From assembly GCA_944385795.1 (NCBI GenBank), contig CALWYP010000032.1:1-55525 (forward strand): a stretch of DNA of 55,525 nucleotides, read 5' to 3'. This stretch comes from an uncultured Oscillospiraceae bacterium. Its GTDB lineage: Bacteria; Bacillota; Clostridia; Oscillospirales; Oscillospiraceae. Position numbers and translations under genes: made by a program. The notes beneath the pieces were generated by a model, which had not been told where the DNA came from, ran no database searches, and saw only the letters and a list, made by a program, of their open reading frames with translations. Shown here in pieces: positions 22,261 to 38,679 of the stretch (the first letter of the stretch is position 1; each line of letters starts with the position of its first letter).

Positions 22261-24377
22261 GCTTCCTCCCTGCCTTCGCCCGCAAAGCTGCTCCAAAGCC
22301 GCTGCTTGCAGATCTGCGTGCGCAGGTCGCACTGCAGGCAGCGCCCGGCCTCAAACCTGGCCGCGTCCTCGGCAAAGCAGCTCTCAACCGGCTGCATGTT
22401 GCGCACGCGCCCGCCCGGCTCCTGCGCCTCGGGCCTGAGCCGCATAAGGCTGCAGAAGCCCTGGTATTCCCCGATCTCCTTGGGCAGCGGCTCGTCCGGG
22501 GCCAGCTTCTCGGAGATGTCCCCGTCGCCGCCGAGGAAGAGGTCCACCGCGGAGGCGGCCTTCTTGCCGCCCGCGACGGCCTCGATGACGTTCCTGGTGC
22601 CGGTTACGGCGTCGCCGGCGGCGAACACGCCCGGCTCGCTGCAGCGCTGGTCCCCGTCGACCTCGAAGTACGCGCCGCGCTTGAGCGCCACGCCAAAGGC
22701 GTCCGCCCCGGCGGGCTTCTGGCCTACGGCGAAGATGACGTTGTCCACGGCTATCGTCTCGAGGGAGTCCGGCTCCTTCTCGATGACCGCGGCGCCGTTG
22801 GCGTCGAAGCTGAAGGACTTGACCTTCTCGAGAGTCATGCCTGTGACGTGCCCGTCGCCCTCTATGCGCACGAAGCTGCGGCCCGGGTGTATCAGCACGC
22901 CCTCCTCGAGGGCCTCGGCTATCTCCTCCGGCCGCGCCGTCATGACGTCGCGGGCCTCGAGGCAGGCGACATGCACCTCCTCGGCGCCCAGGCGGAGGGC
23001 CAGGCGGGCGCAGTCGAAGGCGACGTCGCCGCCGCCGGCGACTAGCACGCGCTTGCCTACCGGCATGGGCTCGTCAAGGCGTGCCGCGCGCAGGAAGTCT
23101 ACGCTCCTGTAAACGCCCTCGTTGCCGCTCCCGTCGAGGGGCAGGGCGGAGGCGGCGTGCGTGCCTATGGCCAGCACCACCGCGTCGTAGCCGGCGGCCT
23201 TCAGCTCGGCGGCGCTGGTCACGCGCTCGCCGGTCTTGATCTCTACGCCGACCTCCTGTATGTCGGCTATCTCCTTGCGCACCACGTCGCGCGGCACGCG
23301 GTATTCGGGTATGCCGTAACGGGTCATGCCGCCGGCCTCGGGCAGGGCCTCGAAGACGGTGACGCTGTGCCCCTGCTTGGCGAGGTAGTAGGCGCTCGTC
23401 AGGCCAGCGGGGCCGCCGCCGACGACGGCTACGCGCTTGCCGGTGGGGGGCAGCTGCTTGCGCCTGGCCTTCCAGGCGTCGCTGCCATAGGTCGCGGCGA
23501 AGCGCTTGATGTTGCGGATGGAGACGGGCTCGCTCACAAACTCGCGGCGGCAGGCCGTCTCGCAGGGGTGCATACACACATAGCCGAGCAGCTTCGGGAA
23601 CGGCACGGCCTCGCGTATGACGGCGAGGGCGTCGTCATAGCGCCCCTCCTTGACGTAGCGCAGGTAGCGCGGCACGTCGGTGTGGGCCGGGCAGGTGGCG
23701 CGGCAGGGCACAAGCTCGTCGGCGGGCGCGGTGCCCTCGGGCAGACGGAAGGTCTCCGGCTTGTCCTGGAGCGCGCCGGTGGGGCAGACGGCCACGCAGG
23801 CCGTGCAGTAGCGGCACATGTCCGTCTCGGTGAGGGTGAGGTCGTTCTCAACCACGACGTCGCCGTTCTTATCCCTGTGGTAGTCCAGCGCGTTGGCCTT
23901 GCGCAGGGCGCGGCAGGCGCGCACGCAGCGCCCGCACTTTATGCAGCGCGCCATGTCGCGCACGAAGAGGGGGTTGCCGGTCTCCTTGCGCATGATCTGG
24001 CCCGTGCTGCGCATCCTGCCTCCGGTGACGCCAAGGTACTGGAGCATGGACTGAAGCGGGCAGCTGCCGAATTTGGGGCAGCCGCTGCAATCGTTGGGGT
24101 GCTCCGCCAGCATGAGCTCGAGGGAGAGGCGGCGGAGGCGGTCGATGTGTTCGCTCGTCGTCTTCACGACCATGCCTTCGCGGACTATGGTCGAGCAGGA
24201 CTCCTGCGGCCCGTCCTCGCCCTCTATCTCCACAAGGCAGAGGCGGCAGGCGCCGTAGGGCATAAGGTCGGGGTGGTGGCAGAGGTTCGGGATGAATATC
24301 CCCGCGTCAAGGGCGGCGTCCAGGACGCTCTGGCCCTCCTTGGCGGATATCACCTTTCCGTCTACGGTAATTTGCAT
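22257..24377 (-). CDS. NuoG-like Fe-S domain fused to GltD-like FAD/NAD(P) oxidoreductase
   Basis: A 706-residue fusion. In order: a [2Fe-2S] ferredoxin domain (about 1-80, NLCHHPDLMPYGACRLC), the NuoG Cys box EHPNDCSGCPKFGSC, two 4Fe-4S clusters (CIKCGRCVRAC, CRYCTACVAVC), the GltD-type N-terminal Cys domain, FAD loop GGGPAGLTSAYYLAKQG, NAD(P) loop GGGDVAFDCARLA and a C-terminal FAD segment with GVFAAGDAVTGTRN. It should take electrons from NAD(P)H and pass them through Fe-S clusters, possibly to the reduced NuoF-like partner and the flavoproteins downstream. The start is ATG 24377 with AAGGAAGG; a TTG nine codons earlier is the alternative. First gene of operon B. Confidence 0.88.
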   Translation of the reverse strand: MQITVDGKVISAKEGQSVLDAALDAGIFIPNLCHHPDLMPYGACRLCLVEIEGEDGPQESCSTIVREGMVVKTTSEHIDRLRRLSLELMLAEHPNDCSGCPKFGSCPLQSMLQYLGVTGGRMRSTGQIMRKETGNPLFVRDMARCIKCGRCVRACRALRKANALDYHRDKNGDVVVENDLTLTETDMCRYCTACVAVCPTGALQDKPETFRLPEGTAPADELVPCRATCPAHTDVPRYLRYVKEGRYDDALAVIREAVPFPKLLGYVCMHPCETACRREFVSEPVSIRNIKRFAATYGSDAWKARRKQLPPTGKRVAVVGGGPAGLTSAYYLAKQGHSVTVFEALPEAGGMTRYGIPEYRVPRDVVRKEIADIQEVGVEIKTGERVTSAAELKAAGYDAVVLAIGTHAASALPLDGSGNEGVYRSVDFLRAARLDEPMPVGKRVLVAGGGDVAFDCARLALRLGAEEVHVACLEARDVMTARPEEIAEALEEGVLIHPGRSFVRIEGDGHVTGMTLEKVKSFSFDANGAAVIEKEPDSLETIAVDNVIFAVGQKPAGADAFGVALKRGAYFEVDGDQRCSEPGVFAAGDAVTGTRNVIEAVAGGKKAASAVDLFLGGDGDISEKLAPDEPLPKEIGEYQGFCSLMRLRPEAQEPGGRVRNMQPVESCFAEDAARFEAGRCLQCDLRTQICKQRLWSSFAGEGREEA

Positions 24378-24432
24378 AGGCAGCGCACCTTCCTTTTGCA
24401 ACAAAGCTGGATGTGTTCATGATTTGTCAAGA

Positions 24433-24461
24433 ATGATATAGCTTTAACAACGGCGCTACAA
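24433..24461 (-). promoter_or_regulatory. Probable promoter of operon B
   Basis: Minus strand: weak -35 TTGTAG (24456-24461), 17 bp, -10 TATCAT (24433-24438), 56 bp before the ATG. The poor -35 suggests an activator. The shared palindrome at 24502-24517 is 40 bp upstream of the -35, nearly identical to operon A. Confidence 0.5.
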
Positions 24462-24501
24462 TGTGTGACCGACTTATTATTTATGACGAAAAACTGAAAT
24501 A

Positions 24502-24517
24502 TTGTGTCCGCATACAA
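24502..24517. promoter_or_regulatory. TTGTG-N6-TACAA palindrome upstream of operon B
   Basis: TTGTG (24502-24506), six bases, TACAA (24513-24517). It matches the operon A operator except for one arm base and has the same spacing to its promoter. Candidate binding site of the PucR-type regulator. Confidence 0.6.
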
Positions 24518-24727
24518 CCCGCCCAAGTGTTGAATAATTTAGTATGTGAGATTTCACAGTTTTGGCCGGGCGAAATTTTACGCGCGTAATGAAAAGGGAA
24601 ACAGTGGAAGCCATCGGACATGACAAAATTGATGAATATAGATGAATAATTTTAATGATTGCCGGTTATTGTTACTGATTTCAGGGCAAAATAACCTGTT
24701 TAAGGATATGCCGCCGCACAATTTGCG

Positions 24728-24743
24728 TTGTGCGAACGCACAA
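24728..24743. promoter_or_regulatory. Second TTGTG-N6-CACAA palindrome
   Basis: Perfect arms TTGTGCG/CGCACAA (24728-24734/24737-24743). An extra inverted half-site GCACAA lies at 24716-24721, so three half-sites occur in 28 bp. It lies 226 bp from the operon B proximal site and about 200 bp upstream of the plus-strand promoter at 24943. It could be a distal site or could serve the other direction. Confidence 0.5.
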
Positions 24744-24785
24744 TAAAAGCGGGCGAAAGAGCCAATTATTGCCGCGGCATATGGG

Positions 24786-24818
24786 AAAAGCCCGCGCCCT
24801 CGAACAGGGGGCGCGGGC
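24786..24818 (-). terminator. Minus-strand terminator-like hairpin in the 24.4-25.0 kb intergenic region
   Basis: Arms GCCCGCGCCC (24790-24799) and GGGCGCGGGC (24809-24818), followed on the minus strand by TTTT. No gene reads toward it on that strand, so it may block spurious transcription into operon B. The rest of 24421-25000 is AT-rich and holds only the promoters, palindromes and repeats listed. Confidence 0.5.
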
Positions 24819-24897
24819 CGGAACTCGCGCTTACATATAATGTAGGAGGAGGGCGCGAAGGGCGGGGACGGCGGGCCGGGCGGTCGCGCCGCCTACC

Positions 24898-24930
24898 AGT
24901 TTGTCCCCGATTGCTGCAAGTTTGTCCCCG
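24898..24930 (+). repeat. Two direct repeats AGTTTGTCCCCG upstream of the STAS-led locus
   Basis: Identical 12-mers at 24898-24909 and 24919-24930, start-to-start 21 bp (two helical turns), ending 12 bp before the candidate -35. This is the classic layout for a regulator binding in tandem on one DNA face. Confidence 0.55.
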
Positions 24931-24942
24931 CGCGCTTGTGCA

Positions 24943-24971
24943 TTGCGCGTGGACATTGTATTCTATATAGT
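24943..24971 (+). promoter_or_regulatory. Candidate promoter of the STAS/MATE/NHLM locus
   Basis: -35 TTGCGC (24943-24948), 17 bp, -10 TATAGT (24966-24971), 41 bp before the STAS start codon. Imperfect hexamers plus the tandem repeats just upstream suggest regulation. Confidence 0.5.
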
Positions 24972-25012
24972 GAAAAACTGTCGGGCGAAACAGCCCGTTT
25001 GGAGGCAGCCTT

Positions 25013-25309
25013 ATGACTATAGACAAGAACCTCTCCGGAAGCGCCCTCACCATCGCCCTCACGGGCCGCCTGGACACGGCGACCGCGCCCCAGCTCGAGA
25101 GCGAGCTCAAGCGCTCCGTGGCGGGCGTGACGGAGCTCTGCTTCGACTTTTCCGGGCTCGAGTACATATCCTCCGCCGGGCTGCGCGTGCTGCTGAGCGC
25201 GCAGAAGGTCATGAACCGCCAGGGCGCCATGGTCATACGCAATGTGAACGAGGTGGTTTCGGAGGTCTTCGAGGTCACCGGGTTTTCGGACATCCTGACC
25301 ATTGAGTGA
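25013..25309 (+). CDS. STAS-domain anti-anti-sigma factor-like protein (SpoIIAA/RsbV type)
   Basis: A 98-residue single STAS domain. In partner switching such proteins bind an RsbW/SpoIIAB-type ATPase when unphosphorylated and are switched off by phosphorylation of a conserved serine. That serine is seen here in FSGLEYISSAGLRVLLSA (the SSAG motif). N-terminal LTGRLDTATAPQLESEL is also typical. SD GGAGG (25001-25005) precedes the ATG. It is the first gene of the locus and overlaps the MATE fusion gene. The same run also encodes a cognate-looking phosphatase (28092) and two RsbW-like domains (in 25302 and 28092), but no sigma factor. Confidence 0.92.
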   Translation: MTIDKNLSGSALTIALTGRLDTATAPQLESELKRSVAGVTELCFDFSGLEYISSAGLRVLLSAQKVMNRQGAMVIRNVNEVVSEVFEVTGFSDILTIE

Positions 25310-27086
25310 GGCGGGCTCCGGCGGCCTGAGGCGCAACGGCTTTTTCCTCAGCCGCGTCTACGGGAAATACCTCGCCGCGAGTGTGCTGAGCATGCTGGCG
25401 ACGAGCGTGTCCGGCATGATAGACACCGTGCTCTCCGGCCGGTTCCTGGGCGAGGACGGCCTCGCGGCCATGTCGCTCACGGGCAGCGTGGGCCTCGTCT
25501 ACTTCACCGTGGGCGCGGTCATAGGGATGGGCGGCTCCATCGCCGGCAACCTCGCCATAGGCCGCGCGGACTACAAGCGCTACCGCGAGCTCTTCACGCT
25601 GACCACGCTGGCCATGGCCGCGGCGGCCGCGCTCATGACGGCGCTCGGCCTAATCTTCCTCGACGGGCTCGCCGCCGCGCTCGGCGGCGAGGGCAGGGCG
25701 GGGGAATACGCGCGGGAATACCTATATTGGTACATCCTCGGCGGGGCCTGCACGCTGTTTATCTATGTGCCTATAAATTTCTGCAAGATGGACGGCCTGC
25801 CGCGCGCGGCGAGCTTCCTCTTCGTCCTCTCCAGCGGGCTGAACGTGGCCTTCACCTGGCTGTTCATGAGCCCGGCCTGCGGCCTCGGCATCGCCGGGGC
25901 GGCCATAGGCACGCAGCTGAGCATGGGCCTCTCTGTGCTTGTTGGCGCGCTCATACTTGCAAAGCGCGCCAAAAACACCCGCTTTACCTCCCTGCGCGGG
26001 GTGAAAATATGGCGCTCGCTGGGCGAAATCCTGCTCTGCGGCAGCCCCAACGGCTGCAACAACCTCTTCAACGCGCTCAAGATAATGCTAATGAACGGCG
26101 TCATACTCGGCCTCGGCCAACAGGCATACCTTGCGAGCTTCTCGCTTGTAAAGAGCGTGGGCGACCTGCTCACAGGCGTTGTCAACGGCGTCGCCGGCGC
26201 GCTCATGCCCATTGTGGGCGTCTACTTCGGCGAGCGCGACTGGGGCAGCATACACGGCGTGTGCCGCCGCGCGGCGCGCATGGGCGGCGCCATAACCGCC
26301 GCCTTCGCCATCGCCGCGGCGCTGCTGTCCGGGGCGCTGTGCGGGCTTTTCAACATCACGGACCCCGCGGCGGCCGCGGCGGCGCGGCGCGGGCTCGCCT
26401 GCCTCGCGGCGAGCTTTGTCTTCGGCTTCGTGAACCTCATGTGCTCCGGCTACTTCAACACAGTGCGCCGCCCAATGCTCTCGAACCTCATCCTCGGCCT
26501 GAGGACGCTGGCCTGCCTGGCGCCCTGCGCGGCGCTCCTGGGCCGCGCGCTCGGGATCGGCGGCGTGTGGCTCGCGCTCATCGCGGCGGACGCGCTGACC
26601 ACGCTCATAATCCTCGCCGCGGCCGCGATCATCAGGCGCGGCAACCCGGGCCTGGACTCGCTTCTGCTCGACAGGGGCCTCCTGCCCGAGCGGGAGATCA
26701 GCTTTTCCGTGGAGAACACGGTGGACGCCGTGGTCTTCGCCTCGGAGAAGATCTCCGGCTTCTGCGAGGACGCCGGGCTCGGCGCGCGGCGCGCCATGCG
26801 CGTTTCCCTCGCGCTCGAGGAGCTGCTGGGCGTTATCCTGCAGCGCTGCCTGGGCGGCGGGAAGCGCAGCTATGTGGACATACGCATCTTCACCGCCGGG
26901 GGCGGCGTGTACCTGCGCTTCCGCTGGGCCGGGCGCATTTTCGACCCGCTGCGCTGGTACGAGGACAACAAGTCCGACCCCGAAATGGCCGAGAGCACGC
27001 TGGGCGTCAAGCTCGTCGCCGCCCAGGCGGAGGAGATAAGTTTCCGCGAGACCTTCGGCACTAACAACCTGCTGGTGCGCTTCTAA
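25302..27086 (+). CDS. MATE-family transporter fused to an RsbW-like ATPase domain
   Basis: A 594-residue protein starting at TTG 25302, overlapping the STAS stop by 8 bp (translational coupling; no good SD of its own). Residues about 15-450 form a MATE/MOP-type multidrug exporter with about twelve helices (SGMIDTVLSGRFLGEDGLAA; TDPAAAAAARRGL). Residues 466-594 resemble the HATPase_c_2 domain of anti-sigma kinases: LALEELLGVILQRC at the N-box position, WAGRIFDPL at G1 and STLGVKLVAAQAEEISF at G2. The N-box Asn is Gly/Val and the G1 Asp is Ala, so kinase activity may be lost while binding is retained. A transporter joined to a partner-switch domain next to its STAS partner is unusual. Confidence 0.85.
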   Translation: MSEAGSGGLRRNGFFLSRVYGKYLAASVLSMLATSVSGMIDTVLSGRFLGEDGLAAMSLTGSVGLVYFTVGAVIGMGGSIAGNLAIGRADYKRYRELFTLTTLAMAAAAALMTALGLIFLDGLAAALGGEGRAGEYAREYLYWYILGGACTLFIYVPINFCKMDGLPRAASFLFVLSSGLNVAFTWLFMSPACGLGIAGAAIGTQLSMGLSVLVGALILAKRAKNTRFTSLRGVKIWRSLGEILLCGSPNGCNNLFNALKIMLMNGVILGLGQQAYLASFSLVKSVGDLLTGVVNGVAGALMPIVGVYFGERDWGSIHGVCRRAARMGGAITAAFAIAAALLSGALCGLFNITDPAAAAAARRGLACLAASFVFGFVNLMCSGYFNTVRRPMLSNLILGLRTLACLAPCAALLGRALGIGGVWLALIAADALTTLIILAAAAIIRRGNPGLDSLLLDRGLLPEREISFSVENTVDAVVFASEKISGFCEDAGLGARRAMRVSLALEELLGVILQRCLGGGKRSYVDIRIFTAGGGVYLRFRWAGRIFDPLRWYEDNKSDPEMAESTLGVKLVAAQAEEISFRETFGTNNLLVRF

Positions 27087-27098
27087 AGGGGCGAAGCT

Positions 27099-28082
27099 AT
27101 GGTATTCACAAACCGCAAAACGGGCGAGAGCGTCCCCGTCGTGTTCCGGCCCTTCGCGCCGGGCGACGAGGAGGGCTTCCGCGCCTGCATAGAGGCCTAC
27201 TACGGCGCTGGCTACCCCTATCCCGAGTACTTCGAGCCCGGCTTCCTCGCCGGCAAGTGCGCCGCCGGGGAGATGCTTGTGCTCTGCGGCGCGCGCCCCG
27301 ACACCGGCGAGATCGTCAACACCTGCGCAATACGCCTCGACGGGGAGTTCCCCGGCACGGGGCTCATGCTGCTGCGCGGGGTGAAGCCGGGCTACCAGGG
27401 CCTGGGCATAGGCCGAGAGCAGGAGAGGGTGCAGCTCGAGTACGCGAAAACGCTCCGCGCCGCCTCGCTCTACGCCGACGTCATGACCCAGGACTGCGTC
27501 AGCCAGCACGGCCTGGAGAAGAACGGCTTCGCGCTCACCGGCCTGCGCCCCGGGCTCTACGACGCGGCAGTGATGCTGCCCGGCTTTGAGTGGCGGCCCG
27601 GCGCGAGGCTCAGCCAGGCGGTCATGTGCCGCCGCTGGGCCCTCTCCGACGCCGGGGAGATCTTCTGCCCCGCGCGGCACAGGGCGGCGGCGGGGCGCGT
27701 CTACGCCGCGCTGGGCGCCACGGTGCGCTTCGCGGACTCCGTCCCCGGCGCCGTGCGCGCGGAGAGCGGGATAGATGAGGAATACGACCCGCGCCACCGC
27801 GGCCGCGTCCTCATCGTCCGCGCCGTGGGGGAGGATTTCCCCGGGCGGCTCGCCGCCCTGCCCGCGGACGACGCCGCGGCGGTCTGCTATTTGAACCTCA
27901 AGAGCCCCGGCGCGGAGCGGGCTTACTCCGCGCTCGCGGAGGCGGGCTTTTCCTTCGCGGGCTTCAAGCCGCTCGGCCCCGGCGAGGAGTACATGCTGCT
28001 CGCCCGCGCCGCGTGCGAATGGCGCGGCACGCTGCATTTGACGGAGGGCGGGCAGTGGCTCGCGGACTACATTGGATTGTGA
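27099..28082 (+). CDS. GNAT-family N-acetyltransferase
   Basis: A 327-residue protein. Residues about 10-165 form a GNAT domain with acetyl-CoA motif A LRGVKPGYQGLGIGREQERV and the following helix VQLEYAKTLRAASLYADV. The second half (about 180-327) is weakly similar to a second, degenerate GNAT-like fold (LNLKSPGAERAYSALAEAGF) without a clear motif A. Lies 12 bp after the MATE fusion and 9 bp before the phosphatase, so co-transcribed. Substrate unknown: a small molecule exported by the MATE protein, or the exported peptides, would both fit the context. Confidence 0.82.
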   Translation: MVFTNRKTGESVPVVFRPFAPGDEEGFRACIEAYYGAGYPYPEYFEPGFLAGKCAAGEMLVLCGARPDTGEIVNTCAIRLDGEFPGTGLMLLRGVKPGYQGLGIGREQERVQLEYAKTLRAASLYADVMTQDCVSQHGLEKNGFALTGLRPGLYDAAVMLPGFEWRPGARLSQAVMCRRWALSDAGEIFCPARHRAAAGRVYAALGATVRFADSVPGAVRAESGIDEEYDPRHRGRVLIVRAVGEDFPGRLAALPADDAAAVCYLNLKSPGAERAYSALAEAGFSFAGFKPLGPGEEYMLLARAACEWRGTLHLTEGGQWLADYIGL

Positions 28083-28091
28083 GGCCAAGGC

Positions 28092-30767
<2,676 letters not shown>

Positions 30768-30779
30768 GGAGGTAAGGCA

Positions 30780-31244
30780 ATGGCTGAGGGAAGCGGGCTT
30801 TTCCGCGAAAAGAGCATGGGGCGCATAAGCTCGCCCGAGCAGCTGGACGACTATATGCGCGTCGCCAACCCCGGCGTGTGGACGCTTTTGGCGGCCGTTA
30901 TTGTGCTGCTGGCAGGCGTTTGCGTTTGGGGCGTGTTCGGCCGGCTGGACACCGTTGTGGACGCCGCCGTCGTCTCCGACGGCGAGCGGGCCTGTTGCGT
31001 CGTGCCGGCGGAGTACATGGACGGCGCGGCCGAGGGCATGGAGGTGGAGGCGCAGGGAGAGCGCTTCACCGTCGCGTACATAGAGAGCGGCGGGGGCGTC
31101 AGCTCCGAGGCCGCGTCTATCGCCGGCGTGGGCGAGGGGGAGCCCTACGCCCTGGCCGCGCTCTCCGGCGCGCCCCCCGCCGGGGTGTACGCCGCGAAGC
31201 TCGTCGTCGAGAGCGTCGCGCCCATGAGCTTCGTGCTCAACTAG
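30780..31244 (+). CDS. Miniature HlyD-like protein of an NHLM peptide-export system
   Basis: A 154-residue single-pass membrane protein. The N-terminus FREKSMGRISSPEQLDDYMRVANPG followed by a TM helix (about 38-58) and GVFGRLDTVVDA matches the start of NHLM-system HlyD/secretion proteins (the LSSPEQLDxLM motif). Those are usually about 400 residues with a coiled coil and lipoyl/barrel domains. Here only a short beta-rich tail remains and it ends in AAKLVVESVAPMSFVLN. Context is the two NHLM-type ABC genes directly downstream. I infer an adaptor subunit of a Gram-positive exporter that needs no long periplasmic bridge. Confidence 0.78.
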   Translation: MAEGSGLFREKSMGRISSPEQLDDYMRVANPGVWTLLAAVIVLLAGVCVWGVFGRLDTVVDAAVVSDGERACCVVPAEYMDGAAEGMEVEAQGERFTVAYIESGGGVSSEAASIAGVGEGEPYALAALSGAPPAGVYAAKLVVESVAPMSFVLN

Positions 31245-31247
31245 GCC

Positions 31248-33425
31248 ATGGCTGAGCGCGTTCCAAGCCCCGTCCGGCACGGGAGGGCAAAGGTGCCGGT
31301 GGTGATGCAGATGGAGGCCCCGGAGTGCGGCGCCGCCTGCCTCGCCATGATACTCGCATACTACGGCAAATGGGTGCCGCTCGAGCAGGTGCGCGCCGAC
31401 TGCGGCGTCTCCCGCGACGGCTCCAACGCGAAGAACATCCTGCGCGCGGCGCGCAGCTACGGCCTCGAGGCCTCCGGCTGGCGCTACGAGCCGGAGGCGC
31501 TGCTCGAGGAGGGGAGCTTCCCGTGCATCGTACACTGGAACTTCAACCACTTCATCGTCCTCACCGGCTTCAAGGGCGGCCGCGTCTATGTGAACGACCC
31601 CGCCCGCGGCGGCTGCGCCATGAGCTTCGAGGAGTTCGACCGCGGCTTCACCGGGATCTGCCTCGCCTTTGAGCCCACGGAGGCCTTCGTCCCCGGCGGC
31701 AAGCCCAAGAGCGTCTTCGCCTACGCCGCCGCGAGGCTGCGCGGCGCGGGCGCGGCCGTGGCCTTCGTCACGCTGACGACGGTCATATCCGCCCTCATCG
31801 GCATAATCAACCCCGCGTTCTCGCGCGTTTTCCTCGACCGGCTGCTGACGGGGGTGAACCCGGGCTGGCTCACGCCCTTCATCCTCGGCCTCGCGGCGCT
31901 CGGCGTGGTGCAGATAGCCGTCGCCTGGGTGCAGGCCGTCTACTCGCTCAAGATAAACGGCAAGCTCGCCGCCCTGGGCAGCACGGAGTTCATGTGGAAG
32001 GTGCTGCGCCTGCCCATGGAGTTCTTCGCCCAGCGCGTCGCCGGCGATATACAGAGCCGGAAGGACACCAACGCCGGCATCGCCAACACCATCGTCAACA
32101 CCCTCGCGCCGCTCGCGCTCAACATGGCGATGATGGCCTTCTACCTCGCCGTCATGCTGCGCTACAGCCCCATGCTCACGCTCGTAGGCGTAACGGGCAT
32201 AGCCGTCAACCTCATCGTCTCGCGCGTCATCTCCAAAAAGCGCATAGACATAGCGAGATTGCAGACGCGCGACGCCGGCAGGCTCGCCGGGGCCACCGTC
32301 TCCGGCATAGAGATGATAGAGACGATAAAGTCCGCCGGCGCGGAGGACGGCTGGTTTGAGCGCTGGGCCGGCTATCAGGCGGGCGTCAATACGCAGCAGG
32401 CGCGCTTCGCCAGGCTCAACCACTATCTCGGCCTCGTCCCCAGGATAGCCGCCTCCGCGGCCAATACCGCCGTGCTCATGCTCGGCGTCTGGCTCACGGT
32501 GCAAGGCGAGTTCACCGCGGGCATGATAATGGCCTTCCAGGGCTTCCTCGCCTCCTTCACGGCCCCGGCCGCGCAGCTCATCACCTCGGGCCAGACCATA
32601 CAGGAGATGCGCACGCAGATGGAGCAGGTGGAGGACGTGCTCAGCTACCGCACGGACCCGAACTGGCGCGACGACCCCGTCGCGGAGGGCGGCGGGTACG
32701 ACAAGCTCTCCGGCGCGGTGGAGCTGCGGCACGTCACCTTCGGCTACTCCCGCCTCGCCGAGCCGCTTATAGAGGACTTCAGCCTCAGCCTCAAGCCCGG
32801 CAGCCGCGTGGCCCTCGTCGGCGAGAGCGGCTGCGGCAAGAGCACCATAGCCAAGCTCGTGAGCGGGCTGTACGAGCCCTGGAGCGGCGAGATACTTTTC
32901 GACGGCAAGCCCATAAAGGAGATAGACCGCAGCGTCTTCACTGGCTCCCTCGCCGTGGTCGACCAGGACATAATCCTCTTTGAGGACAGCGTCTCCGCCA
33001 ACATCAAGATGTGGGACAGCTCGATAGAGGACTTCGAGGTCATCCTCGCGGCGCGGGACGCCGAGATACACGAGACGATCATGCAGCGCGACGGCGGCTA
33101 CAACGCCCGCGTCGCCGAGGGCGGCCGCGGCTTCTCCGGCGGCGAGCGGCAGCGCCTAGAGATAGCGCGCGTGCTGGCGCAGGACCCCACGATAGTGATA
33201 CTCGACGAGGCCACCAGCGCCCTGGACGCGCGCACGGAATACAACGTCGTGCGGCATATACGCGAGCGCGGCGTCACCTGCATCGTCGTGGCCCACCGCC
33301 TGTCCACCATACGCGACTGCGACGAGATAATAGTCCTCGACCACGGCCGCGTCGCCGAGCGCGGCACGCACGAGGAGCTCCACGCCAAGGGCGGGCTCTA
33401 CGCCGGGCTCGTCGCCAGCGAATAG
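31248..33425 (+). CDS. NHLM-type peptidase-containing ABC exporter (PCAT)
   Basis: A 725-residue PCAT. Residues 15-140 are a C39 leader peptidase with oxyanion Gln21, catalytic Cys27 in PECGAACLAMI, His in FNHFIVLTGF and Asp in VNDPARGG. Residues about 165-450 are the six-helix transporter domain. The ATPase (about 480-725) has Walker A GESGCGKST, signature FSGGERQRLEIAR, Walker B IVILDEATSALD and H-loop VAHRLST. Such proteins cut leaders after a double glycine and export the core peptide. It starts 3 bp after the HlyD-like stop without a strong SD (coupled). Best matches the NHLM bacteriocin ABC1 family (peptidase/ATP-binding). Five GG-leader genes downstream are the obvious substrates. Confidence 0.94.
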   Translation: MAERVPSPVRHGRAKVPVVMQMEAPECGAACLAMILAYYGKWVPLEQVRADCGVSRDGSNAKNILRAARSYGLEASGWRYEPEALLEEGSFPCIVHWNFNHFIVLTGFKGGRVYVNDPARGGCAMSFEEFDRGFTGICLAFEPTEAFVPGGKPKSVFAYAAARLRGAGAAVAFVTLTTVISALIGIINPAFSRVFLDRLLTGVNPGWLTPFILGLAALGVVQIAVAWVQAVYSLKINGKLAALGSTEFMWKVLRLPMEFFAQRVAGDIQSRKDTNAGIANTIVNTLAPLALNMAMMAFYLAVMLRYSPMLTLVGVTGIAVNLIVSRVISKKRIDIARLQTRDAGRLAGATVSGIEMIETIKSAGAEDGWFERWAGYQAGVNTQQARFARLNHYLGLVPRIAASAANTAVLMLGVWLTVQGEFTAGMIMAFQGFLASFTAPAAQLITSGQTIQEMRTQMEQVEDVLSYRTDPNWRDDPVAEGGGYDKLSGAVELRHVTFGYSRLAEPLIEDFSLSLKPGSRVALVGESGCGKSTIAKLVSGLYEPWSGEILFDGKPIKEIDRSVFTGSLAVVDQDIILFEDSVSANIKMWDSSIEDFEVILAARDAEIHETIMQRDGGYNARVAEGGRGFSGGERQRLEIARVLAQDPTIVILDEATSALDARTEYNVVRHIRERGVTCIVVAHRLSTIRDCDEIIVLDHGRVAERGTHEELHAKGGLYAGLVASE

Positions 33426-33436
33426 GGGGTGAGCGC

Positions 33437-35629
33437 ATGGGTTGGTTTGACGAACAGATACGAAGCCGCAAGCTGAGCGACGACGAGGCCTTCGCCGGGG
33501 CCTTCGCCGACATCGCCGGGGCAGTGCTGGGCCCCAAGGCAGCGGCGGCCTTCCGGGACGAGCGCCGCGCCTCCCGCGACGCGATAGAGGAGATACTGCG
33601 CTTCTACCGCGTGGACTCCCGCCCGCTCCCGCCCGAGCTCAAGACAACGGAGGAGCAGCTCGAGTACCTCCTGCGCCCGCACGGGATAATGCGCCGCACG
33701 GTGAAGCTCAGAGCCGGCTGGCACAAGGACGCCGTCGGCGCCATGCTCGGCGTGCGCCGCTCCGACGGGGGCATAGTGGCCCTCGTGCCCGGCCCCTTCG
33801 GCGGCTACAGCTTCCTTGACCGCGAGAGCGGCAGGCGCGTGCGCGTGACGGACGCCACGGAAAAGCTCTTCGAGGAGGACGCCGCCGCCTTCTGCGTGCC
33901 CTTCCCGCTCAAGAAGCTCTCGCTGGGCGAGCTGGTCCGCTACATAATGCGCTGCCTCAGCGCGGGGGACTTCGTCCTCTTCGCGGCCGTGACGCTTGCG
34001 ATAACCCTCGTGGGCCTGCTCCCGGCCAAGCTCAACAACATAATCTTCTCCCAGATAGTCGTGAGCGGCGGCGCGCGCGTCATCATCGCCATGGGGGTCT
34101 TCCTCCTGTGCGTGAACGTGAGCTCGCTCATACTCCTCGTCGTGAAGAGTATGCTGCTCACGCGCGTGAACGCGAAGATGGACGCCGCCGTCAGCGCCGC
34201 GGCCATGATGCGCATAATCTCGCTGCCCGCGGACTTCTTCCGCGGCTTCGCCTCCGGCGAGCTCGCCGGGCGCGCGCAGAACATCAGCGCGCTCTGCGAC
34301 CAGCTGGTGAACGTCCTGCTCTCCACGGGCCTCACGGGCGTGTTTTCCCTCGTGTACATAGCGCAGATCTTCAACTACGCCCCCGCCCTGGCCGGCCCCG
34401 CGCTGGGCGTCATTGCGGCGACCGTGCTCTTTTCCGCCGTATCCGCCTGCGTGCAGATGCGCCTGAGCCGCCGCAGCATGGAGCTGGACGCCAAGGAGCG
34501 CGGCATGAGCTACGCGCTTATAGCCGGGGTGCAGAAGATAAAGCTCGCCGGGGCCGAGAAGCGCGCCTTCGCCCGCTGGGCGAAGCTCTTTGCCCGCGGC
34601 GCGGCCGTCACATATAACCCGCCGCTCTTCATAAAGCTCAACGGCGTCATCATGACAGCGATAAGCCTCGCGGGCACGATCATCATGTACTACGGCGCGG
34701 TCAAAAGCGGCGTCAGCGTCGCGGACTACTACGCCTTCACCGGGGCCTACGGCATGGTCTCCGGGGCCTTCTCCTCCCTCGCGGGCATAGCCCTCACGGC
34801 GGCGCAGTTCAAGCCCATATACGAGCTCGCGCGGCCCATACTAGAGACTGTCCCCGAGACGGGGGAGGGCCGCGAGATCGTGACGCGCCTCTCCGGCGCG
34901 GTGGAGCTCAGCCACGTCACCTTCCGATATACGGAGACGATGCCGCCCGTGCTCGACAACCTCTCGCTCAAGATCCGGCCCGGCCAGTATGTGGCCATAG
35001 TCGGGCCCACCGGCTGCGGGAAATCGACGCTGCTGCGCCTGCTCCTGGGCTTCGAGACGCCGCAGAAGGGCGCGGTGTACTACGACGGGCGCGACATTGC
35101 GCGCCTCGACCTCAAGAGCCTGCGCCGCAGGATGGGCGTGGTCATGCAGGACGGGAAGCTCTTCCGCGGCGACATCTATTCCAACATCGCCGCCGCGTCG
35201 CCGGGGCTGAGCATGGACGAGGCCTGGGAGGCCGCGGAGGCCGCCGGGCTCGCCGAGGATATCCGCCGTATGCCCATGGGCATGTTCACCATGCTCTCCG
35301 AGGGCGGGGGAGGCATTTCCGGCGGCCAGCGCCAGAGGCTTATGATAGCCCGGGCCGTGGCCGGCAAGCCGCGCATACTCATGTTCGACGAGGCCACCAG
35401 CGCCCTGGACAATATCACGCAGAAGCGCGTCAGCGAGGCGCTCGACGCCCTCAAGTGTACGCGCATAGTCATAGCCCACCGCCTCTCCACCATACGCCGC
35501 TGCGACCGCATACTCTACCTGGAGGGCGGACATATAGTCGAGGACGGCAGCTACGGCGAGCTCATGGCCCTGAAGGGCAGGTTCGCCGCCCTTGTGGAGC
35601 GGCAGCAACTCGCGCCGGACGCCGGATAA
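33437..35629 (+). CDS. NHLM-type ABC exporter, second subunit (no C39 peptidase)
   Basis: A 730-residue ABC protein starting at ATG 33437 (SD GGGGGTGAG). The N-terminal 150 residues, in place of a C39 domain, correspond to the soluble N-terminal region of NHLM ABC2 proteins (IEEILRFYRVDSRPLPPEL, LLRPHGIMRRTVKL ... GWHKDAVGAMLG). Next come a six-helix transmembrane domain (about 170-460) and the ATPase with Walker A GPTGCGKST, signature ISGGQRQRLMIAR, Walker B ILMFDEATSALD and H-loop IAHRLST. It probably forms a heterodimer with the peptidase-bearing subunit just upstream. It looks somewhat shorter than typical NHLM ABC2 proteins. The longer frame back to 33011 is antiphase to the previous gene. 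Confidence 0.93.
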   Translation: MGWFDEQIRSRKLSDDEAFAGAFADIAGAVLGPKAAAAFRDERRASRDAIEEILRFYRVDSRPLPPELKTTEEQLEYLLRPHGIMRRTVKLRAGWHKDAVGAMLGVRRSDGGIVALVPGPFGGYSFLDRESGRRVRVTDATEKLFEEDAAAFCVPFPLKKLSLGELVRYIMRCLSAGDFVLFAAVTLAITLVGLLPAKLNNIIFSQIVVSGGARVIIAMGVFLLCVNVSSLILLVVKSMLLTRVNAKMDAAVSAAAMMRIISLPADFFRGFASGELAGRAQNISALCDQLVNVLLSTGLTGVFSLVYIAQIFNYAPALAGPALGVIAATVLFSAVSACVQMRLSRRSMELDAKERGMSYALIAGVQKIKLAGAEKRAFARWAKLFARGAAVTYNPPLFIKLNGVIMTAISLAGTIIMYYGAVKSGVSVADYYAFTGAYGMVSGAFSSLAGIALTAAQFKPIYELARPILETVPETGEGREIVTRLSGAVELSHVTFRYTETMPPVLDNLSLKIRPGQYVAIVGPTGCGKSTLLRLLLGFETPQKGAVYYDGRDIARLDLKSLRRRMGVVMQDGKLFRGDIYSNIAAASPGLSMDEAWEAAEAAGLAEDIRRMPMGMFTMLSEGGGGISGGQRQRLMIARAVAGKPRILMFDEATSALDNITQKRVSEALDALKCTRIVIAHRLSTIRRCDRILYLEGGHIVEDGSYGELMALKGRFAALVERQQLAPDAG

Positions 35630-35641
35630 GGAGGTAACAGT

Positions 35642-35956
35642 ATGGACGACAGGAAAAAACCCGCCCCGGAGGACGACGAGGCCCTGGCCTCCGTCACCGG
35701 CGGCGCGGGCAAGCGCGGCGGCGGGCACATACTCTGCCCCTACTGCGCGTGCGAGCTTGTGAGCCTCCAGGGCATACGCGCGCACTACGGCGTGGAGTAT
35801 TTCTGCCCGGGCTGCGGCGAACGCTTCGCGGGCTACAACGACCAGATGGTGCGCAAGCAGATAGAGTACGCCCGCCGCCTTGTGCACACGCTGGGCGCAA
35901 GCGCGGCCAAGGAGCAGCTCAAGGAGAGCAAAAACGGAGTAAAGGACCTGCTCTGA
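35642..35956 (+). CDS. GG-leader zinc-ribbon protein 1 (candidate exporter substrate)
   Basis: A 104-residue protein 12 bp after the exporter gene, with SD GGAGG. The first 21 residues end in EDDEALASVTGG, a short form of the double-glycine leader. Then comes a basic glycine linker and a four-Cys ribbon, CPYC...CPGC (about residues 32-35 and 53-56, 17 residues between the pairs), followed by a roughly 45-residue helical tail rich in Arg/Lys. It differs from the next four genes in its leader (no LSEAEL stretch) and in the helical tail. It could be a cargo, a leader-recognition helper, or an ancestral member of the family. No modifying enzyme is nearby. Confidence 0.75.
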   Translation: MDDRKKPAPEDDEALASVTGGAGKRGGGHILCPYCACELVSLQGIRAHYGVEYFCPGCGERFAGYNDQMVRKQIEYARRLVHTLGASAAKEQLKESKNGVKDLL

Positions 35957-35977
35957 GCAGGAAAAGGAGGAACAGCC

Positions 35978-36166
35978 ATGTCTGAAGAAAAGAAAAACGT
36001 CCCCCTGAGCGAGGCCGAGCTCGACAAGGTCGCCGGAGGCTATACCTACTGGCCCGAGGGGAAGCGCGCCGCAGGCCAGATGATCTGCCCCAACTGCCTG
36101 TGCATTTTCGACAGCCCGAACGGGGACGTCACCTGCCCCGCCTGCGGCTATCCGGAAAAACGATAA
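35978..36166 (+). CDS. GG-leader peptide 2 with zinc-ribbon core
   Basis: A 62-residue precursor-like peptide. Leader MSEEKKNVPLSEAELDKVAGG (21 residues) has the LSEAELxxVAGG pattern of Nif11/NHLP-type leaders recognised by PCATs. The predicted core of about 41 residues has four cysteines as two knuckles (ICPNC and TCPACGY), a probable Zn site. SD AAGGAGG. Leader nearly identical to those of the following three genes while cores diverge, as in families of exported peptides. Confidence 0.82.
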   Translation: MSEEKKNVPLSEAELDKVAGGYTYWPEGKRAAGQMICPNCLCIFDSPNGDVTCPACGYPEKR

Positions 36167-36180
36167 AGGAGGCTTAAACC

Positions 36181-36393
36181 ATGTCCGAGGAGAAGAAAAA
36201 CGCCTTGAGCGAGGCCGAGCTCGGCGAGGTCGCCGGTGGCACCGGCCTTATACCCAAGGAGCCGACGTATTCCTACGCGCCCAGCGTGTGCAGCAAGTGC
36301 GGCGCGCCCATGATGGAGACGGTGACCAGCGCGATGTGCACCAAATGCGGCTGGAGCGTCAAGATCCAGCGCAACGTCCCCAAATTTGTCTGA
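36181..36393 (+). CDS. GG-leader peptide 3 with zinc-ribbon core
   Basis: A 70-residue precursor. Leader MSEEKKNALSEAELGEVAGG, core of about 50 residues with CSKCG and CTKCGW knuckles 14 residues apart and a basic C-terminal tail (KIQRNVPKFV). Lies 14 bp after the preceding peptide with its own AAAGGAGG SD. One codon (Val-Pro to Ala) is lost in the leader relative to its paralogues. Confidence 0.82.
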   Translation: MSEEKKNALSEAELGEVAGGTGLIPKEPTYSYAPSVCSKCGAPMMETVTSAMCTKCGWSVKIQRNVPKFV

Positions 36394-36407
36394 CAAGGAG
36401 GAAAAAC

Positions 36408-36605
36408 ATGCCCGAAGAGAAGAAAAACGTCCCCCTGAACGAGGACGAGCTAGGCAAGGTCGCCGGCGGCGCCATCATAGCCGACAACGACCTCTTCCCA
36501 GACGAGTCGATCTGGCCCGACTGCCCCAGATGCGGCACCCACGTCGGGCGCTACAACGGCGTGGAGTACAACTTCGTCTGCCCGAACTGCGGCTGGAAGG
36601 CATAA
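36408..36605 (+). CDS. GG-leader peptide 4 with zinc-ribbon core
   Basis: A 65-residue precursor starting at ATG 36408 (AAGGAGG SD). Leader MPEEKKNVPLNEDELGKVAGG, core with DCPRCG and CPNCGWKA knuckles. The C-terminal CPNCGWKA end is also recognisable, frameshifted, after peptide 5. A frame that begins earlier at 36288 overlaps peptide 3 and is rejected. Confidence 0.82.
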   Translation: MPEEKKNVPLNEDELGKVAGGAIIADNDLFPDESIWPDCPRCGTHVGRYNGVEYNFVCPNCGWKA

Positions 36606-36624
36606 TAAAAAAGGAGGAAAAACT

Positions 36625-36834
36625 ATGTCCGAAGAGAAGAAGAACGTCCCTTTGAGCGAGGATGAGCTCGGCGAAGTCGCCGGCGGCGGCGTCATAGCCA
36701 CCTCAGTCGGAGCCGTGCCGGAAGCCATGGAGGTCATATTGAACTCCGTCGCCGACGAGCCGACCGCCATGGAGGTCATACTGAACTCCGAGAGCCTCAG
36801 CCCGACTGCCCCAACAGCGCCGCCGAAACGATAA
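36625..36834 (+). CDS. GG-leader peptide 5, cysteine-free core caused by frameshift
   Basis: A 69-residue frame with an intact leader MSEEKKNVPLSEDELGEVAGG and its own SD. The core has no cysteine and contains a duplicated AMEVILNS block from a 24-bp direct repeat (36724-36747 and 36766-36789, offset 42 bp, in frame). In the -1 frame the following bases encode PDCPNS...CPARGWRMA, which aligns with the ribbon of peptide 4 (PDCPRC...CPNCGWKA). So the reading frame left the ancestral core after the duplication, and two of four cysteines have also mutated. Either a decaying gene or a recently made new core that is still exportable. Confidence 0.7.
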   Translation: MSEEKKNVPLSEDELGEVAGGGVIATSVGAVPEAMEVILNSVADEPTAMEVILNSESLSPTAPTAPPKR

Positions 36835-36887
36835 CCCGCGCGAAAGGCAAGCTCGCCTGCCCCGCCCGCGGCTGGAGGATGGCCTGA
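36801..36887 (+). pseudogene. Frameshifted remnant of the zinc-ribbon core of peptide 5
   Basis: Read in the frame of 36801, this stretch gives a degenerate ribbon ending at TGA 36885-36887. The first pair CPRC has become CPNS and the second pair CPNC has become CPAR, while flanking residues (PDCP, GW) are kept. It overlaps the end of the peptide 5 frame and continues past its TAA at 36832-36834. Together with the intact leader this dates the decay as recent. Confidence 0.7.
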
Positions 36888-36956
36888 GCCCGCGAAGCCT
36901 AGGAAAACCCAAGGCCCGCCCGGAATTGAACGGCCCAGGTAAAACTGGGCAGCAAA

Positions 36957-36996
36957 ATACCCCCTGATGCAGCCTGTTTCCTGCGTCAGGGGGTAT
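36957..36996. terminator. Strong hairpin between peptide cluster and GH13 gene
   Basis: Arms 36957-36972 and 36981-36996 (one mismatch). On the minus strand the stem is followed by a T-rich tail, so it terminates the GH13 gene ending at 37015. It can also stop plus-strand transcripts leaving the peptide genes. A smaller stem, GCCCAG/CTGGGC, lies at 36933-36950. Confidence 0.8.
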
Positions 36997-37014
36997 TATC
37001 ATGAGGGATTACGC

Positions 37015-38679
37015 TTATTCAAAGAGGTACACCCTCAGCTCGTAGGGCCGCGCGGTAAAGGCGTTGCCGACGACCACGTTCAGGTCGTGGTTCTTGAAGA
37101 TGAGCTCGCCGTCCATGAGGTCGAAGCCCTCGGGGCAGGTGAAATAGGTCTCGCGCGGCACAAGCGAGGCTATGACCAGCAGCCTCCGGCCCTCGTGCTC
37201 GCGGCAGTAGCAGTAGAAGTTCGGGCTCTGCGGTATGAGCTCCGTATAGCTTCCATACCTGACTATGGGCTCGCTCTTGCGGAAGGCGATCAGGGCGCGG
37301 TAAAAGTTGAGCAGGCTGTCCTCGTCCAGCTCCTCGGCCGCCGCGTTCACGCTGCGGTAGTTCTCGTTGACGTAGAACCAGGGCTCGCCGGAGCTGAAGC
37401 CGGCGTTGGCGCTCGCGTCCCACTGCACCGGCGTGCGCGAGTTCTCCCGCGCGGACTCCTGCGTCCAGCGCAGCTGCACGGACTCCGGCAGCCAGTTCCT
37501 GACCTTCAGCAGCTGGCCGCGCGTCATGACGTCGGGGTACATGTCCTTGCTGGGCAGGCGCAGGTTGGTCATGCCCAGCTCCTGGCCCTGGTAGATGAAG
37601 GGCGTGCCCTTGAGCAGCATATAGCACGCCGCCAGGGCCTTCCCGCTCTCTACGCGGTAGTCCTCGCTCCCGTAGCGGCTTATTATGCGCGCGTGGTCGT
37701 GGTTCTCCAGATACAGCGCGTTCCAGCCGCGGCCCTCCAGGGCGGCCTGCCAGGCGCTCAGCGCGCGCTTGAAACGCTTTACGGAGAATTTCCTGCGCAC
37801 AAAGTCTGTCCCGCGGCAGTCGGCGCGCATGTGGTCGAAGGTGAACATCATGTCCAGCTCCCCGCTCTCCAGGAAGGCGGCCGCCTTGGCCGAGCTGATA
37901 TTGTCGGCCTCGCCAATCAGCACGGCGCCGTACTTGTCCGTGACGCTGCGGTAATAGCGCAGGTAATCGTGCAGGTTGGGCCCGTCGGTATACTTTTTAA
38001 GCCCGTTGGCCGCGGGCCGCCTCGGGAACTCGTCGGGCAGGCCCTTGGGCTTGGAGATGTACACTATCGCGTCGGCGCGGAAGCCGTCCACGCCCAGCTC
38101 CAGCCAGAAGCGCATGACCTCGGCTATCTCCTGTCGCACGGCGGGGTTGTCGTGGTTCAAATCCGGCTGCTGCTTGGCGAAGACGTGCAGGTAGTATTCG
38201 CCCAGCTGCTCGTCGTACTCCCAGGCCTCGCCGCCGAAAAGGCTGTCCCAGTTGTTCGGCTCCTTCCGCGCGCCGTTCCTCGCGCGGCGCGGCTCGCGCC
38301 AGAAGTAGTAGTCGTGATGCGGGTCGGCCCTGTCCCGGCTGAGCTTGAACCACTCGTGCTCGGCAGAGGTGTGGTTCACCACCAGGTCCATAACTACCCT
38401 CATGCCGCGCTCATGCGCCCCGGCGAGGACCTTCTTGAATATCTCCATGTCCCCGTACTCGGGGTTTATCGCCCTGTAGTCCGCCACGTCGTAGCCGAAG
38501 TCGAAGTTCGGCGAGGGGTATAGCGGCGAAAACCATATCGCGTCCGCGCCGAGCCCCTTTATGTAGTCCAGCTTGGAGTAGACGCCGTAGAGGTCGCCTA
38601 TCCCGTCGCCGTTGCCGTCGCAGAAGCTGCGCGGCCATATCTGATAGAACACCGCGTCCTTATACCAGTCGCAACTCAT
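37015..38679 (-). CDS. GH13 alpha-glucosidase (oligo-1,6-glucosidase/trehalose-6-P hydrolase type)
   Basis: A 554-residue intracellular glycoside hydrolase of family GH13. Seen: N-terminal WYKDAVFYQIWPRSFCDGNG and GDGIGDLYG, region I DLVVNHTS, region II GFRADAI with the nucleophile Asp, region III LIGEADN with the acid/base Glu, region IV LENHDHAR with the third acid, and SRTPVQWDASANAGF near the end, typical of oligo-1,6-glucosidases and trehalose-6-phosphate hydrolases. No signal peptide. The start is ATG 38679 with GGGAG 8 bp upstream; a GTG three codons earlier is less likely. No sugar transporter is adjacent, so the in vivo substrate is open. Confidence 0.92.
   Translation of the reverse strand: MSCDWYKDAVFYQIWPRSFCDGNGDGIGDLYGVYSKLDYIKGLGADAIWFSPLYPSPNFDFGYDVADYRAINPEYGDMEIFKKVLAGAHERGMRVVMDLVVNHTSAEHEWFKLSRDRADPHHDYYFWREPRRARNGARKEPNNWDSLFGGEAWEYDEQLGEYYLHVFAKQQPDLNHDNPAVRQEIAEVMRFWLELGVDGFRADAIVYISKPKGLPDEFPRRPAANGLKKYTDGPNLHDYLRYYRSVTDKYGAVLIGEADNISSAKAAAFLESGELDMMFTFDHMRADCRGTDFVRRKFSVKRFKRALSAWQAALEGRGWNALYLENHDHARIISRYGSEDYRVESGKALAACYMLLKGTPFIYQGQELGMTNLRLPSKDMYPDVMTRGQLLKVRNWLPESVQLRWTQESARENSRTPVQWDASANAGFSSGEPWFYVNENYRSVNAAAEELDEDSLLNFYRALIAFRKSEPIVRYGSYTELIPQSPNFYCYCREHEGRRLLVIASLVPRETYFTCPEGFDLMDGELIFKNHDLNVVVGNAFTARPYELRVYLFE

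What the first reader, a model, noticed from the sequence alone, without database searches (positions are those of the whole stretch)
25013..36887. Candidate new system: partner-switch module wired to NHLM-type export of zinc-ribbon peptides
Seen: an uninterrupted plus-strand run of STAS protein, MATE-RsbW fusion, GNAT, dCache-SpoIIE-RsbW receptor, mini-HlyD, C39-PCAT, second ABC subunit and five small GG-leader genes, all with short gaps or overlaps. Known: SpoIIE/STAS/RsbW modules switch partners in general stress and sporulation control; NHLM PCATs cut GG leaders and export. Inference: an extracellular signal read by dCache controls, through STAS phosphorylation, either transporter activity or cargo export directly, because no sigma factor is encoded. 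The combination of this switch with unmodified zinc-ribbon cargo is not one I recognise.
Basis: partly seen in the sequence, partly recalled or inferred. Interest (0 to 1): 0.93.

Follow-up and report, generated by a model that had tools for sequence, protein, structure and literature searches.

The report
Partner switch joined to peptide exporter
Twelve same-strand genes in a bacterium related to Oscillospiraceae put a phosphorylation-switch gene set, predicted to control a transporter through a kinase-like tail that lacks its catalytic motifs, next to a peptide export machine that would secrete small zinc-ribbon proteins; related bacteria carry similar tails on other transporters.

Summary
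In detail: 25013-36834 is one plus-strand run of STAS, MATE with RsbW-like tail, GNAT, dCache-HAMP-SpoIIE-RsbW, mini-HlyD, NHLM-type PCAT, second ABC subunit and five GG-leader genes (four with two CxxC pairs). Switch and exporter do co-occur: 16 of 68 short-HlyD NHLM loci have two or three kinds of switch domain within 9 kb, against 0 of 25 long-HlyD loci; all 70 domain hits around 96 PCATs lie on the exporter's strand. But this STAS type mostly lies elsewhere (17 of 128 hits near a PCAT), and a sister cassette in the same genus stands alone (L173). The switch is a separate cassette joined to NHLM several times. Its likeliest target here is its own MATE: the tail is predicted to fold like SpoIIAB, yet 0 of 31 MATE-tail rows keep all seven catalytic-motif positions, against 24 of 24 SpoIIE-fused RsbW domains. 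No switch domain was found on PCAT, ABC2 or HlyD. Binding, phosphorylation, signal, transcript and export are untested. Verdict: real and recurrent, not found described; direct wiring to the exporter not shown.

The parts
25013..25309 (+). STAS protein (anti-anti-sigma type) with the acceptor motif ISSAGLR
   Evidence: PF01740 4.7e-17; TIGR00377 72 bits, cut-off 53; SSxG motif in 82 of 83 STAS hits of my loci, the exception a 30-aa fragment
25302..27086 (+). MATE transporter with RsbW-like tail
26682..27083 (+). RsbW-like tail without N-box Asn, DxG Asp or the GG of GGLG (candidate pseudokinase)
27099..28082 (+). GNAT-type acyltransferase, variable enzyme of the cassette
   Evidence: PF00583 at its cut-off; other cassettes carry LPG_synthase_C, GH3 or ATP-grasp enzymes
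28092..30767 (+). dCache-HAMP-SpoIIE phosphatase-RsbW kinase receptor
   Evidence: Pfam; all seven RsbW motif positions; four PP2C acidic motifs, as in 38 of 41
30780..31244 (+). mini-HlyD (154 aa), N-terminal anchor part of the NHLM HlyD
   Evidence: TIGR03794 positions 1-47, 1.2e-07
31248..33425 (+). NHLM PCAT: C39 peptidase-permease-ATPase
   Evidence: TIGR03796 931 bits, cut-off 853
33437..35629 (+). NHLM second ABC subunit
   Evidence: TIGR03797 699 bits, just below its cut-off of 709
35642..35956 (+). GG-leader peptide 1, core with CPYC and CPGC
   Evidence: sequence
35978..36166 (+). GG-leader peptide 2, core with CPNC and CPAC
   Evidence: sequence; five database relatives besides itself
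36181..36393 (+). GG-leader peptide 3, core with CSKC and CTKC
   Evidence: sequence
36408..36605 (+). GG-leader peptide 4, core with CPRC and CPNC
   Evidence: sequence
36625..36834 (+). GG-leader peptide 5, no Cys in frame; relative L042 has a longer gene with two CxxC pairs
36956..36997 (.). hairpin after the run, probable terminator
   Evidence: -31.4 kcal/mol, z -5.5, 0 of 200 shuffles as stable

Best explanation
The window puts, in one same-strand run, a partner-switch cassette that likely gates its own MATE transporter through that transporter's RsbW-like tail, which lacks catalytic motifs, next to an NHLM-type exporter predicted to cut and export zinc-ribbon GG peptides. Shown: gene content and order, domains, the conserved acceptor serine, intact phosphatase and kinase motifs in the receptor, loss of kinase motifs in the tail, recurrence of the join in other genera, and cassettes without NHLM. 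Inferred: an extracellular ligand read by dCache shifts the balance between the SpoIIE phosphatase and the intact RsbW kinase of one receptor; unphosphorylated STAS leaves the active RsbW and docks on the tail of the MATE, changing its activity; phosphorylated STAS does not. The GNAT probably makes or modifies what the MATE moves. The NHLM genes would be tied to the switch by co-transcription and a shared occasion, not by a docking site of their own.
Against: No binding, phosphorylation or transport data; loss of kinase motifs does not show STAS binding. Four of 16 locus MATE tails keep the N-box Asn (L055 twice, L122, L176). ABC tails are often not beside this STAS type: 10 of 22 hits within 10 kb, but seven of those ten built the model; of the other 15, 3. 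Three of 19 MATE-tail hits have no such STAS nearby. Only 6 of the 16 NHLM loci with two or more kinds of switch domain have a MATE with tail (one more, L043, is cut by the contig end), so elsewhere the target must be something else. SigF/SigG of the host could be a target in trans. The genome is a draft, 111 contigs, 87% complete, 5% contaminated.
Confidence: 0.47

Rival explanations
1. Classic transcriptional switch: an RsbW domain (of the receptor or the MATE) holds a sigma factor encoded elsewhere, and STAS phosphorylation decides whether that sigma factor transcribes the operon.
For: The switch proteins are of the sigma-control type. The own genome has 9 matches to TIGR02980 (SigBFG), one over the cut-off. 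17 of 96 operon walks around NHLM PCATs hold a sigma-70-type gene.
Against: No sigma gene among the twelve genes. The two best matches look like SigG, and SigF beside a SpoIIAA-like STAS gene. A second, motif-less RsbW domain fused to a transporter is not needed for a sigma switch.
Confidence: 0.22
2. One reading: the switch acts directly on the NHLM exporter or its cargo.
For: Repeated joining on one strand; two or more kinds of switch domain in 16 of 68 short-HlyD against 0 of 25 long-HlyD loci (Fisher p 0.005, loci not independent; 11 of 51 against 0 of 20 PCAT clusters). A STAS protein that binds an ABC ATPase is known, MlaB on MlaF (PMC7367683, abstract). Ten of the 16 loci have no MATE with tail, or are cut before it.
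Against: No STAS or RsbW-like domain found on PCAT, ABC2 or HlyD; 40 of 68 short-HlyD loci show no switch gene within 9 kb, some on short contigs; cassettes without NHLM.
Confidence: 0.18
3. Neighbours only: two modules share a favoured place in these genomes and their adjacency has no functional meaning.
For: This STAS type is mostly elsewhere (17 of 128 hits near a PCAT), and NHLM linkage is hardly clustered on the phosphatase tree (11 changes, shuffled mean 13.6, 47 of 500 shuffles as low).
Against: Same strand in 70 of 70 domain hits, gaps of 3-21 bases, and proximity above chance: 17 hits, or 9 without the eight loci that built the STAS model, against about 0.15 by my rough estimate (128 hits, 39 PCAT loci of 20 kb, 300 genomes of about 2.2 Mb).
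Confidence: 0.12

Closest known systems
SiaABCD of Pseudomonas aeruginosa (PMC7647112, abstract read)
   Same: A PP2C-type phosphatase and a kinase balance the phosphorylation of one STAS-like protein by a partner switch that controls biofilm formation
   Different: Separate kinase, threonine acceptor; output linked to a diguanylate cyclase (SiaC-SiaD: PMC8457831, listing only); no transporter tail or exporter mentioned in the abstract
SypE/SypA of Vibrio fischeri (PMC8256260, passages read)
   Same: One dual serine kinase/phosphatase acts on one STAS protein that is active unphosphorylated
   Different: Target unknown, biofilm locus; the word MATE does not occur in that review (find)
MlaB-MlaF (PMC7367683, abstract read)
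   Same: A STAS protein binds a transporter and is proposed to regulate it
   Different: Binds an ABC ATPase directly and stabilises it; no RsbW-like tail or SpoIIE phosphatase in the abstract
RsbW3 of Mycobacterium smegmatis (PMC10950880, passages read)
   Same: An RsbW homolog that is not itself the anti-sigma factor and acts by protein binding
   Different: Free protein of a sigma switch, forms a heterodimer with RsbW1
NHLM/NHLP export systems (Haft et al. 2010, PMC2887384, passages read)
   Same: Same PCAT and second ABC families and leader-peptide cargo
   Different: HlyD here is reduced to its anchor; leaders are short GG leaders without an NHLP or Nif11 model match; the terms SpoIIE, anti-sigma and phosphatase do not occur in that paper

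Membership tests
Partner-switch module (RsbU/RsbV/RsbW type) | STAS protein with acceptor serine | tested here: met
   PF01740; TIGR00377 above cut-off; SSAGL motif
Partner-switch module (RsbU/RsbV/RsbW type) | SpoIIE/PP2C phosphatase and RsbW kinase with intact motifs | tested here: met
   Pfam; seven of seven RsbW positions; PP2C motifs. Activity not tested
Partner-switch module (RsbU/RsbV/RsbW type) | Switch of STAS between partners by phosphorylation | not testable with these tools
   needs biochemistry
Sigma-factor switch (SigB/SigF type) | Cognate sigma factor in the operon | tested here: not met
   No sigma gene among 25013-36834
RsbW/HATPase_c_2 kinase (for the MATE tail) | RsbW fold | tested here: met
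RsbW/HATPase_c_2 kinase (for the MATE tail) | N-box Asn, DxG and GGLG motifs (role in ATP use recalled) | tested here: not met
   3 of 7 positions in the window; PF13581 not listed for the window protein at E 0.001
NHLM export system | PCAT of TIGR03796 | tested here: met
   931 bits, cut-off 853
NHLM export system | Second ABC subunit of TIGR03797 | tested here: inconclusive
   699 bits, cut-off 709
NHLM export system | Full HlyD-type protein of TIGR03794 | tested here: not met
   Positions 1-47 of 421, 31 bits, cut-off 156; I therefore write NHLM-type exporter
NHLM export system | NHLP or Nif11-type precursor leader | tested here: inconclusive
   No such NCBIfam match up to E 1 for the five peptides; weak CTB bacteriocin hits below cut-off for two
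Zinc-ribbon proteins | Two CxxC pairs and a Pfam zinc-ribbon match above cut-off | tested here: inconclusive
   Two CxxC pairs in four of five peptides; all Pfam matches below cut-off; zinc binding not tested
RiPP (modified peptide) | Modifying enzyme in the operon | tested here: inconclusive
   No lanthipeptide, YcaO or radical SAM family among the listed matches of the seven larger genes; the GNAT could act on cargo

The most novel reading that the evidence does not exclude
A further kind of output for bacterial partner switching: transporters of unrelated families carry a dead RsbW domain as a built-in receptor for the unphosphorylated STAS protein, so that an extracellular signal gates transport directly; in this lineage the device was joined to a zinc-ribbon peptide exporter so that transport by the MATE and peptide secretion answer the same signal.
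Probability: 0.38. Interest if true: 0.88.

Novelty: new variant of a known kind. Interest (0 to 1): 0.72.

Why it matters
If true, part of the SpoIIE/STAS/RsbW signalling in gut Clostridia, usually read as sporulation or stress control, would be transporter control, and SpoIIE and STAS genes without a sigma factor would have a testable target: the tailed transporter next door. It would also give short-HlyD NHLM exporters of Oscillospiraceae and Lachnospiraceae an identifiable signal input, and mark zinc-ribbon GG peptides as a recurrent cargo type.

Tried and rejected
Direct switch-exporter docking: no STAS or RsbW-like domain on the three exporter proteins by Pfam or by my own profiles (NCBIfam lists were capped at 25); kept as a rival because domain search cannot exclude it.

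Single origin of the joined operon: the phosphatase tree (42 rows, 17 linked) needs 11 label changes, at least 5 on well-supported branches, and puts the window's receptor with L042 and L043 next to the unlinked L173 of G004, same genus. Rejected, with the caveats that gains and losses are not told apart and that row L135 (the host's other phosphatase) has a very long branch.

Zinc-ribbon cargo tied to the switch: on my by-eye list of 11 loci (from; L044 and L114, with fewer pairs, not counted) 9 have a switch gene against 19 of 57 other short-HlyD loci (p 0.005), but 12 of 25 when only loci with a called GG peptide are compared (p 0.08), and 6 of 8 against 15 of 43 clusters at 80% PCAT identity (p 0.05). 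A tendency, not a rule: L036, L039 and the long-HlyD loci L077-L079 have similar cargo without it.

Switch and sigma factor as exclusive alternatives: rejected, both lie within 9 kb in L032, L055, L087, L097, L105, L113 and L127.

General rule 'every ABC tail has a STAS neighbour': not borne out (3 of 15 hits outside the model's own loci).

RsbW hits on proteins of 425-473 aa in L113, L127 and L128 (and others tagged HK) are LytS-type histidine kinases by sequence and were not counted. A first cargo pattern was wrong and replaced. The columns labelled E and N are one off; one search is the corrected count. In the full-length MATE model the tail was not covered by structural matches, so it was folded alone. 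Rfam: nothing at gathering score in 22000-38000.

Rows left out of the 96-locus table: L033 and L040 (same contigs as L042 and L043), L041 (no C39 hit), L071-L073 (two distant C39 transporters and one hit without C39), L135 and L136 (loci of the host's other SpoIIE-family matches); L001-L030, short stretches, were not used. The 96 loci are not independent (72 PCAT clusters at 80%), several are cut by contig ends, and those were found with patterns from the window's own PCAT; the 47 short-HlyD loci from the model searches alone (with the window) give 20 with any and 10 with two or more kinds.

Papers: ten searches in an open-licence library; I saw titles and openings of abstracts in lists that were mostly capped, and none describes a partner switch joined to NHLM or an RsbW-tailed transporter. 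That is not proof of absence from print.
Full report
What is there. The window comes from a draft genome in the same genus as G011, whose contig C263 matches a record of Candidatus Scatomorpha merdipullorum by length and sequence (inference). Between 25013 and 36834 twelve plus-strand genes follow each other with gaps of 3 to 21 bases or an 8-base overlap: STAS, MATE with an RsbW-like tail, GNAT, a dCache-HAMP-SpoIIE-RsbW receptor, a 154-residue HlyD, an NHLM PCAT, the second NHLM ABC subunit, and five GG-leader genes. About 600 bases without a convincing gene precede the run, and a strong hairpin follows it. Plus-strand terminator-like hits inside it lie within genes. Four of the five peptides have a core with two CxxC pairs; the fifth stops before its CxxC-like part, which is out of frame, whereas relative L042 has a longer version with both pairs.

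Does it recur? I searched for the NHLM PCAT in 60 relatives, 391 genomes of the class and 300 of the family (overlapping sets; 37 of the 300 have one), and scanned a named genome collection, then read up to about 10 kb around each PCAT where the contig allowed. In the table of 96 loci, 68 have a short HlyD (203 residues or fewer), 25 a long one (266 or more) and 3 none called. Of the 68, 28 have at least one STAS, SpoIIE or RsbW domain within 9 kb, 16 at least two kinds and 10 all three. Of the 25, the numbers are 2, 0 and 0. All 70 domain hits are on the strand of the PCAT. After clustering PCATs at 80% identity the short-HlyD figures are 21, 11 and 7 of 51 clusters, the long ones 2 and 0 of 20. 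The closest copies of the full arrangement are L042 and, cut by the contig end, L043 in the same genus, L123 in another genus of the family and L045 in Lachnospiraceae; L104 carries the cassette after the exporter. Of the 16 loci with two or more kinds, 6 have a MATE with tail (WIN, L042, L045, L055, L104, L123).

Is the switch part of the exporter? No. The STAS subfamily has 128 hits in 87 of 300 family genomes (E 1e-24); 17 lie within 10 kb of one of the 39 PCAT loci on the same strand, at 15 loci, although the model was built from 12 STAS proteins of PCAT loci, eight of them in this sample. One further hit (G614) lies 9.2 kb away on the other strand. Forty of the remaining hits, mostly high-scoring ones, were fetched with their surroundings. 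Twenty-five of these stretches have a SpoIIE phosphatase and 29 an RsbW-type domain. L173, in the window's own genus, has STAS, MATE with tail, GNAT and receptor in the window's order, while that genome's NHLM operon lies on another contig without switch genes (L034). In L182 a cut-off NHLM operon starts divergently beside such a cassette. On the phosphatase tree the window's receptor, with L042 and L043, is sister to that of L173, and NHLM linkage needs 11 changes, at least 5 on well-supported branches. The join has therefore arisen, or been lost, several times.

Mechanism. I read this as a switch whose active kinase and phosphatase sit in the receptor and whose output, in this cassette, is the transporter that bears a dead copy of the kinase as a docking site. 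Unphosphorylated STAS would choose between the active RsbW and the tail; ligand binding outside would tip the balance. The steps from ligand to transport are inferred. In other loci STAS is fused to enzymes: an AMP-binding ligase (Pfam for L048; L118 by similarity), an APH-type kinase, and a protein that looks like a methyltransferase but has no Pfam match outside STAS, which suggests that the same docking could recruit enzymes. The enzyme of the cassette is a GNAT, LPG_synthase_C, GH3 or ATP-grasp protein, enzymes that form acyl or amide bonds by family knowledge; the MATE may move their product. The NHLM exporter shows no docking domain and would follow by transcription.

Sigma factor? None among the twelve genes. 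The host genome has 9 matches to the SigBFG model, one over the cut-off; the best two look like SigG, and SigF near a SpoIIAA-like STAS gene, the others like housekeeping and sporulation sigma factors (my reading). No further SigB-like gene stood out, in a genome that is 87% complete. A sigma factor in trans is a rival, not excluded.

Known and new. Partner switching with a non-sigma output is known (SiaABC, PMC7647112, abstract), a dual kinase/phosphatase on a STAS protein too (SypE/SypA, PMC8256260, passages), and a STAS protein bound to an ABC transporter as well (MlaB/MlaF, PMC7367683, abstract). In ten searches of an open-licence library I saw no paper on RsbW-tailed transporters or on a partner switch in NHLM operons (titles and abstract openings, lists mostly capped). 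I file it as a new variant of a known kind, with a case for a new output class. Zinc-ribbon GG cargo recurs in eight short-HlyD PCAT clusters of my by-eye list, six of them with a switch gene.

Noticed in passing
L144, L145, L149, L152, L155, L158, L160, L175: ABC transporters of amino-acid type (SBP, permease and ATPase in one chain in L160; 1132-1480 aa where the frame is whole) end in a degenerate RsbW-like tail and lie beside STAS genes, mostly with SpoIIE phosphatases nearby.
   Followed up: yes
L157, L164, L166, L176, L179: Proteins of 517-557 aa that hold STAS, APH-type kinase and an intact RsbW domain in one chain (Pfam checked for L164).
   Followed up: partly
L048, L118 (STAS with AMP ligase); L106, L107, L133 (STAS with methyltransferase-like part): STAS domains fused to enzymes beside NHLM exporters, acceptor serine kept.
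   Followed up: partly
L046, L049, L053, L055, L104: HlyD of these NHLM operons is reduced to 55-76 residues, little more than a membrane anchor.
   Followed up: no
L035, L115, L116, L117: GG-leader cargo with LysM-like cores (by eye) in place of zinc ribbons.
   Followed up: no
L087, L105, L113, L124, L127, L128: Tiny GG/GA-leader peptides with a core like G(D/N/S)P(F/W) followed by prolines; in L105, L113, L124, L127 and L128 together with a protein of 1381-1685 residues (Calx-beta domain in L127).
   Followed up: no
G546:C22:47300-49423: The PCAT lies in an open frame of 1472 aa, apparently fused to the second ABC subunit.
   Followed up: no
window 24405-25012: About 600 bases upstream of the run without a convincing gene; no Rfam match at gathering score.
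   Followed up: partly
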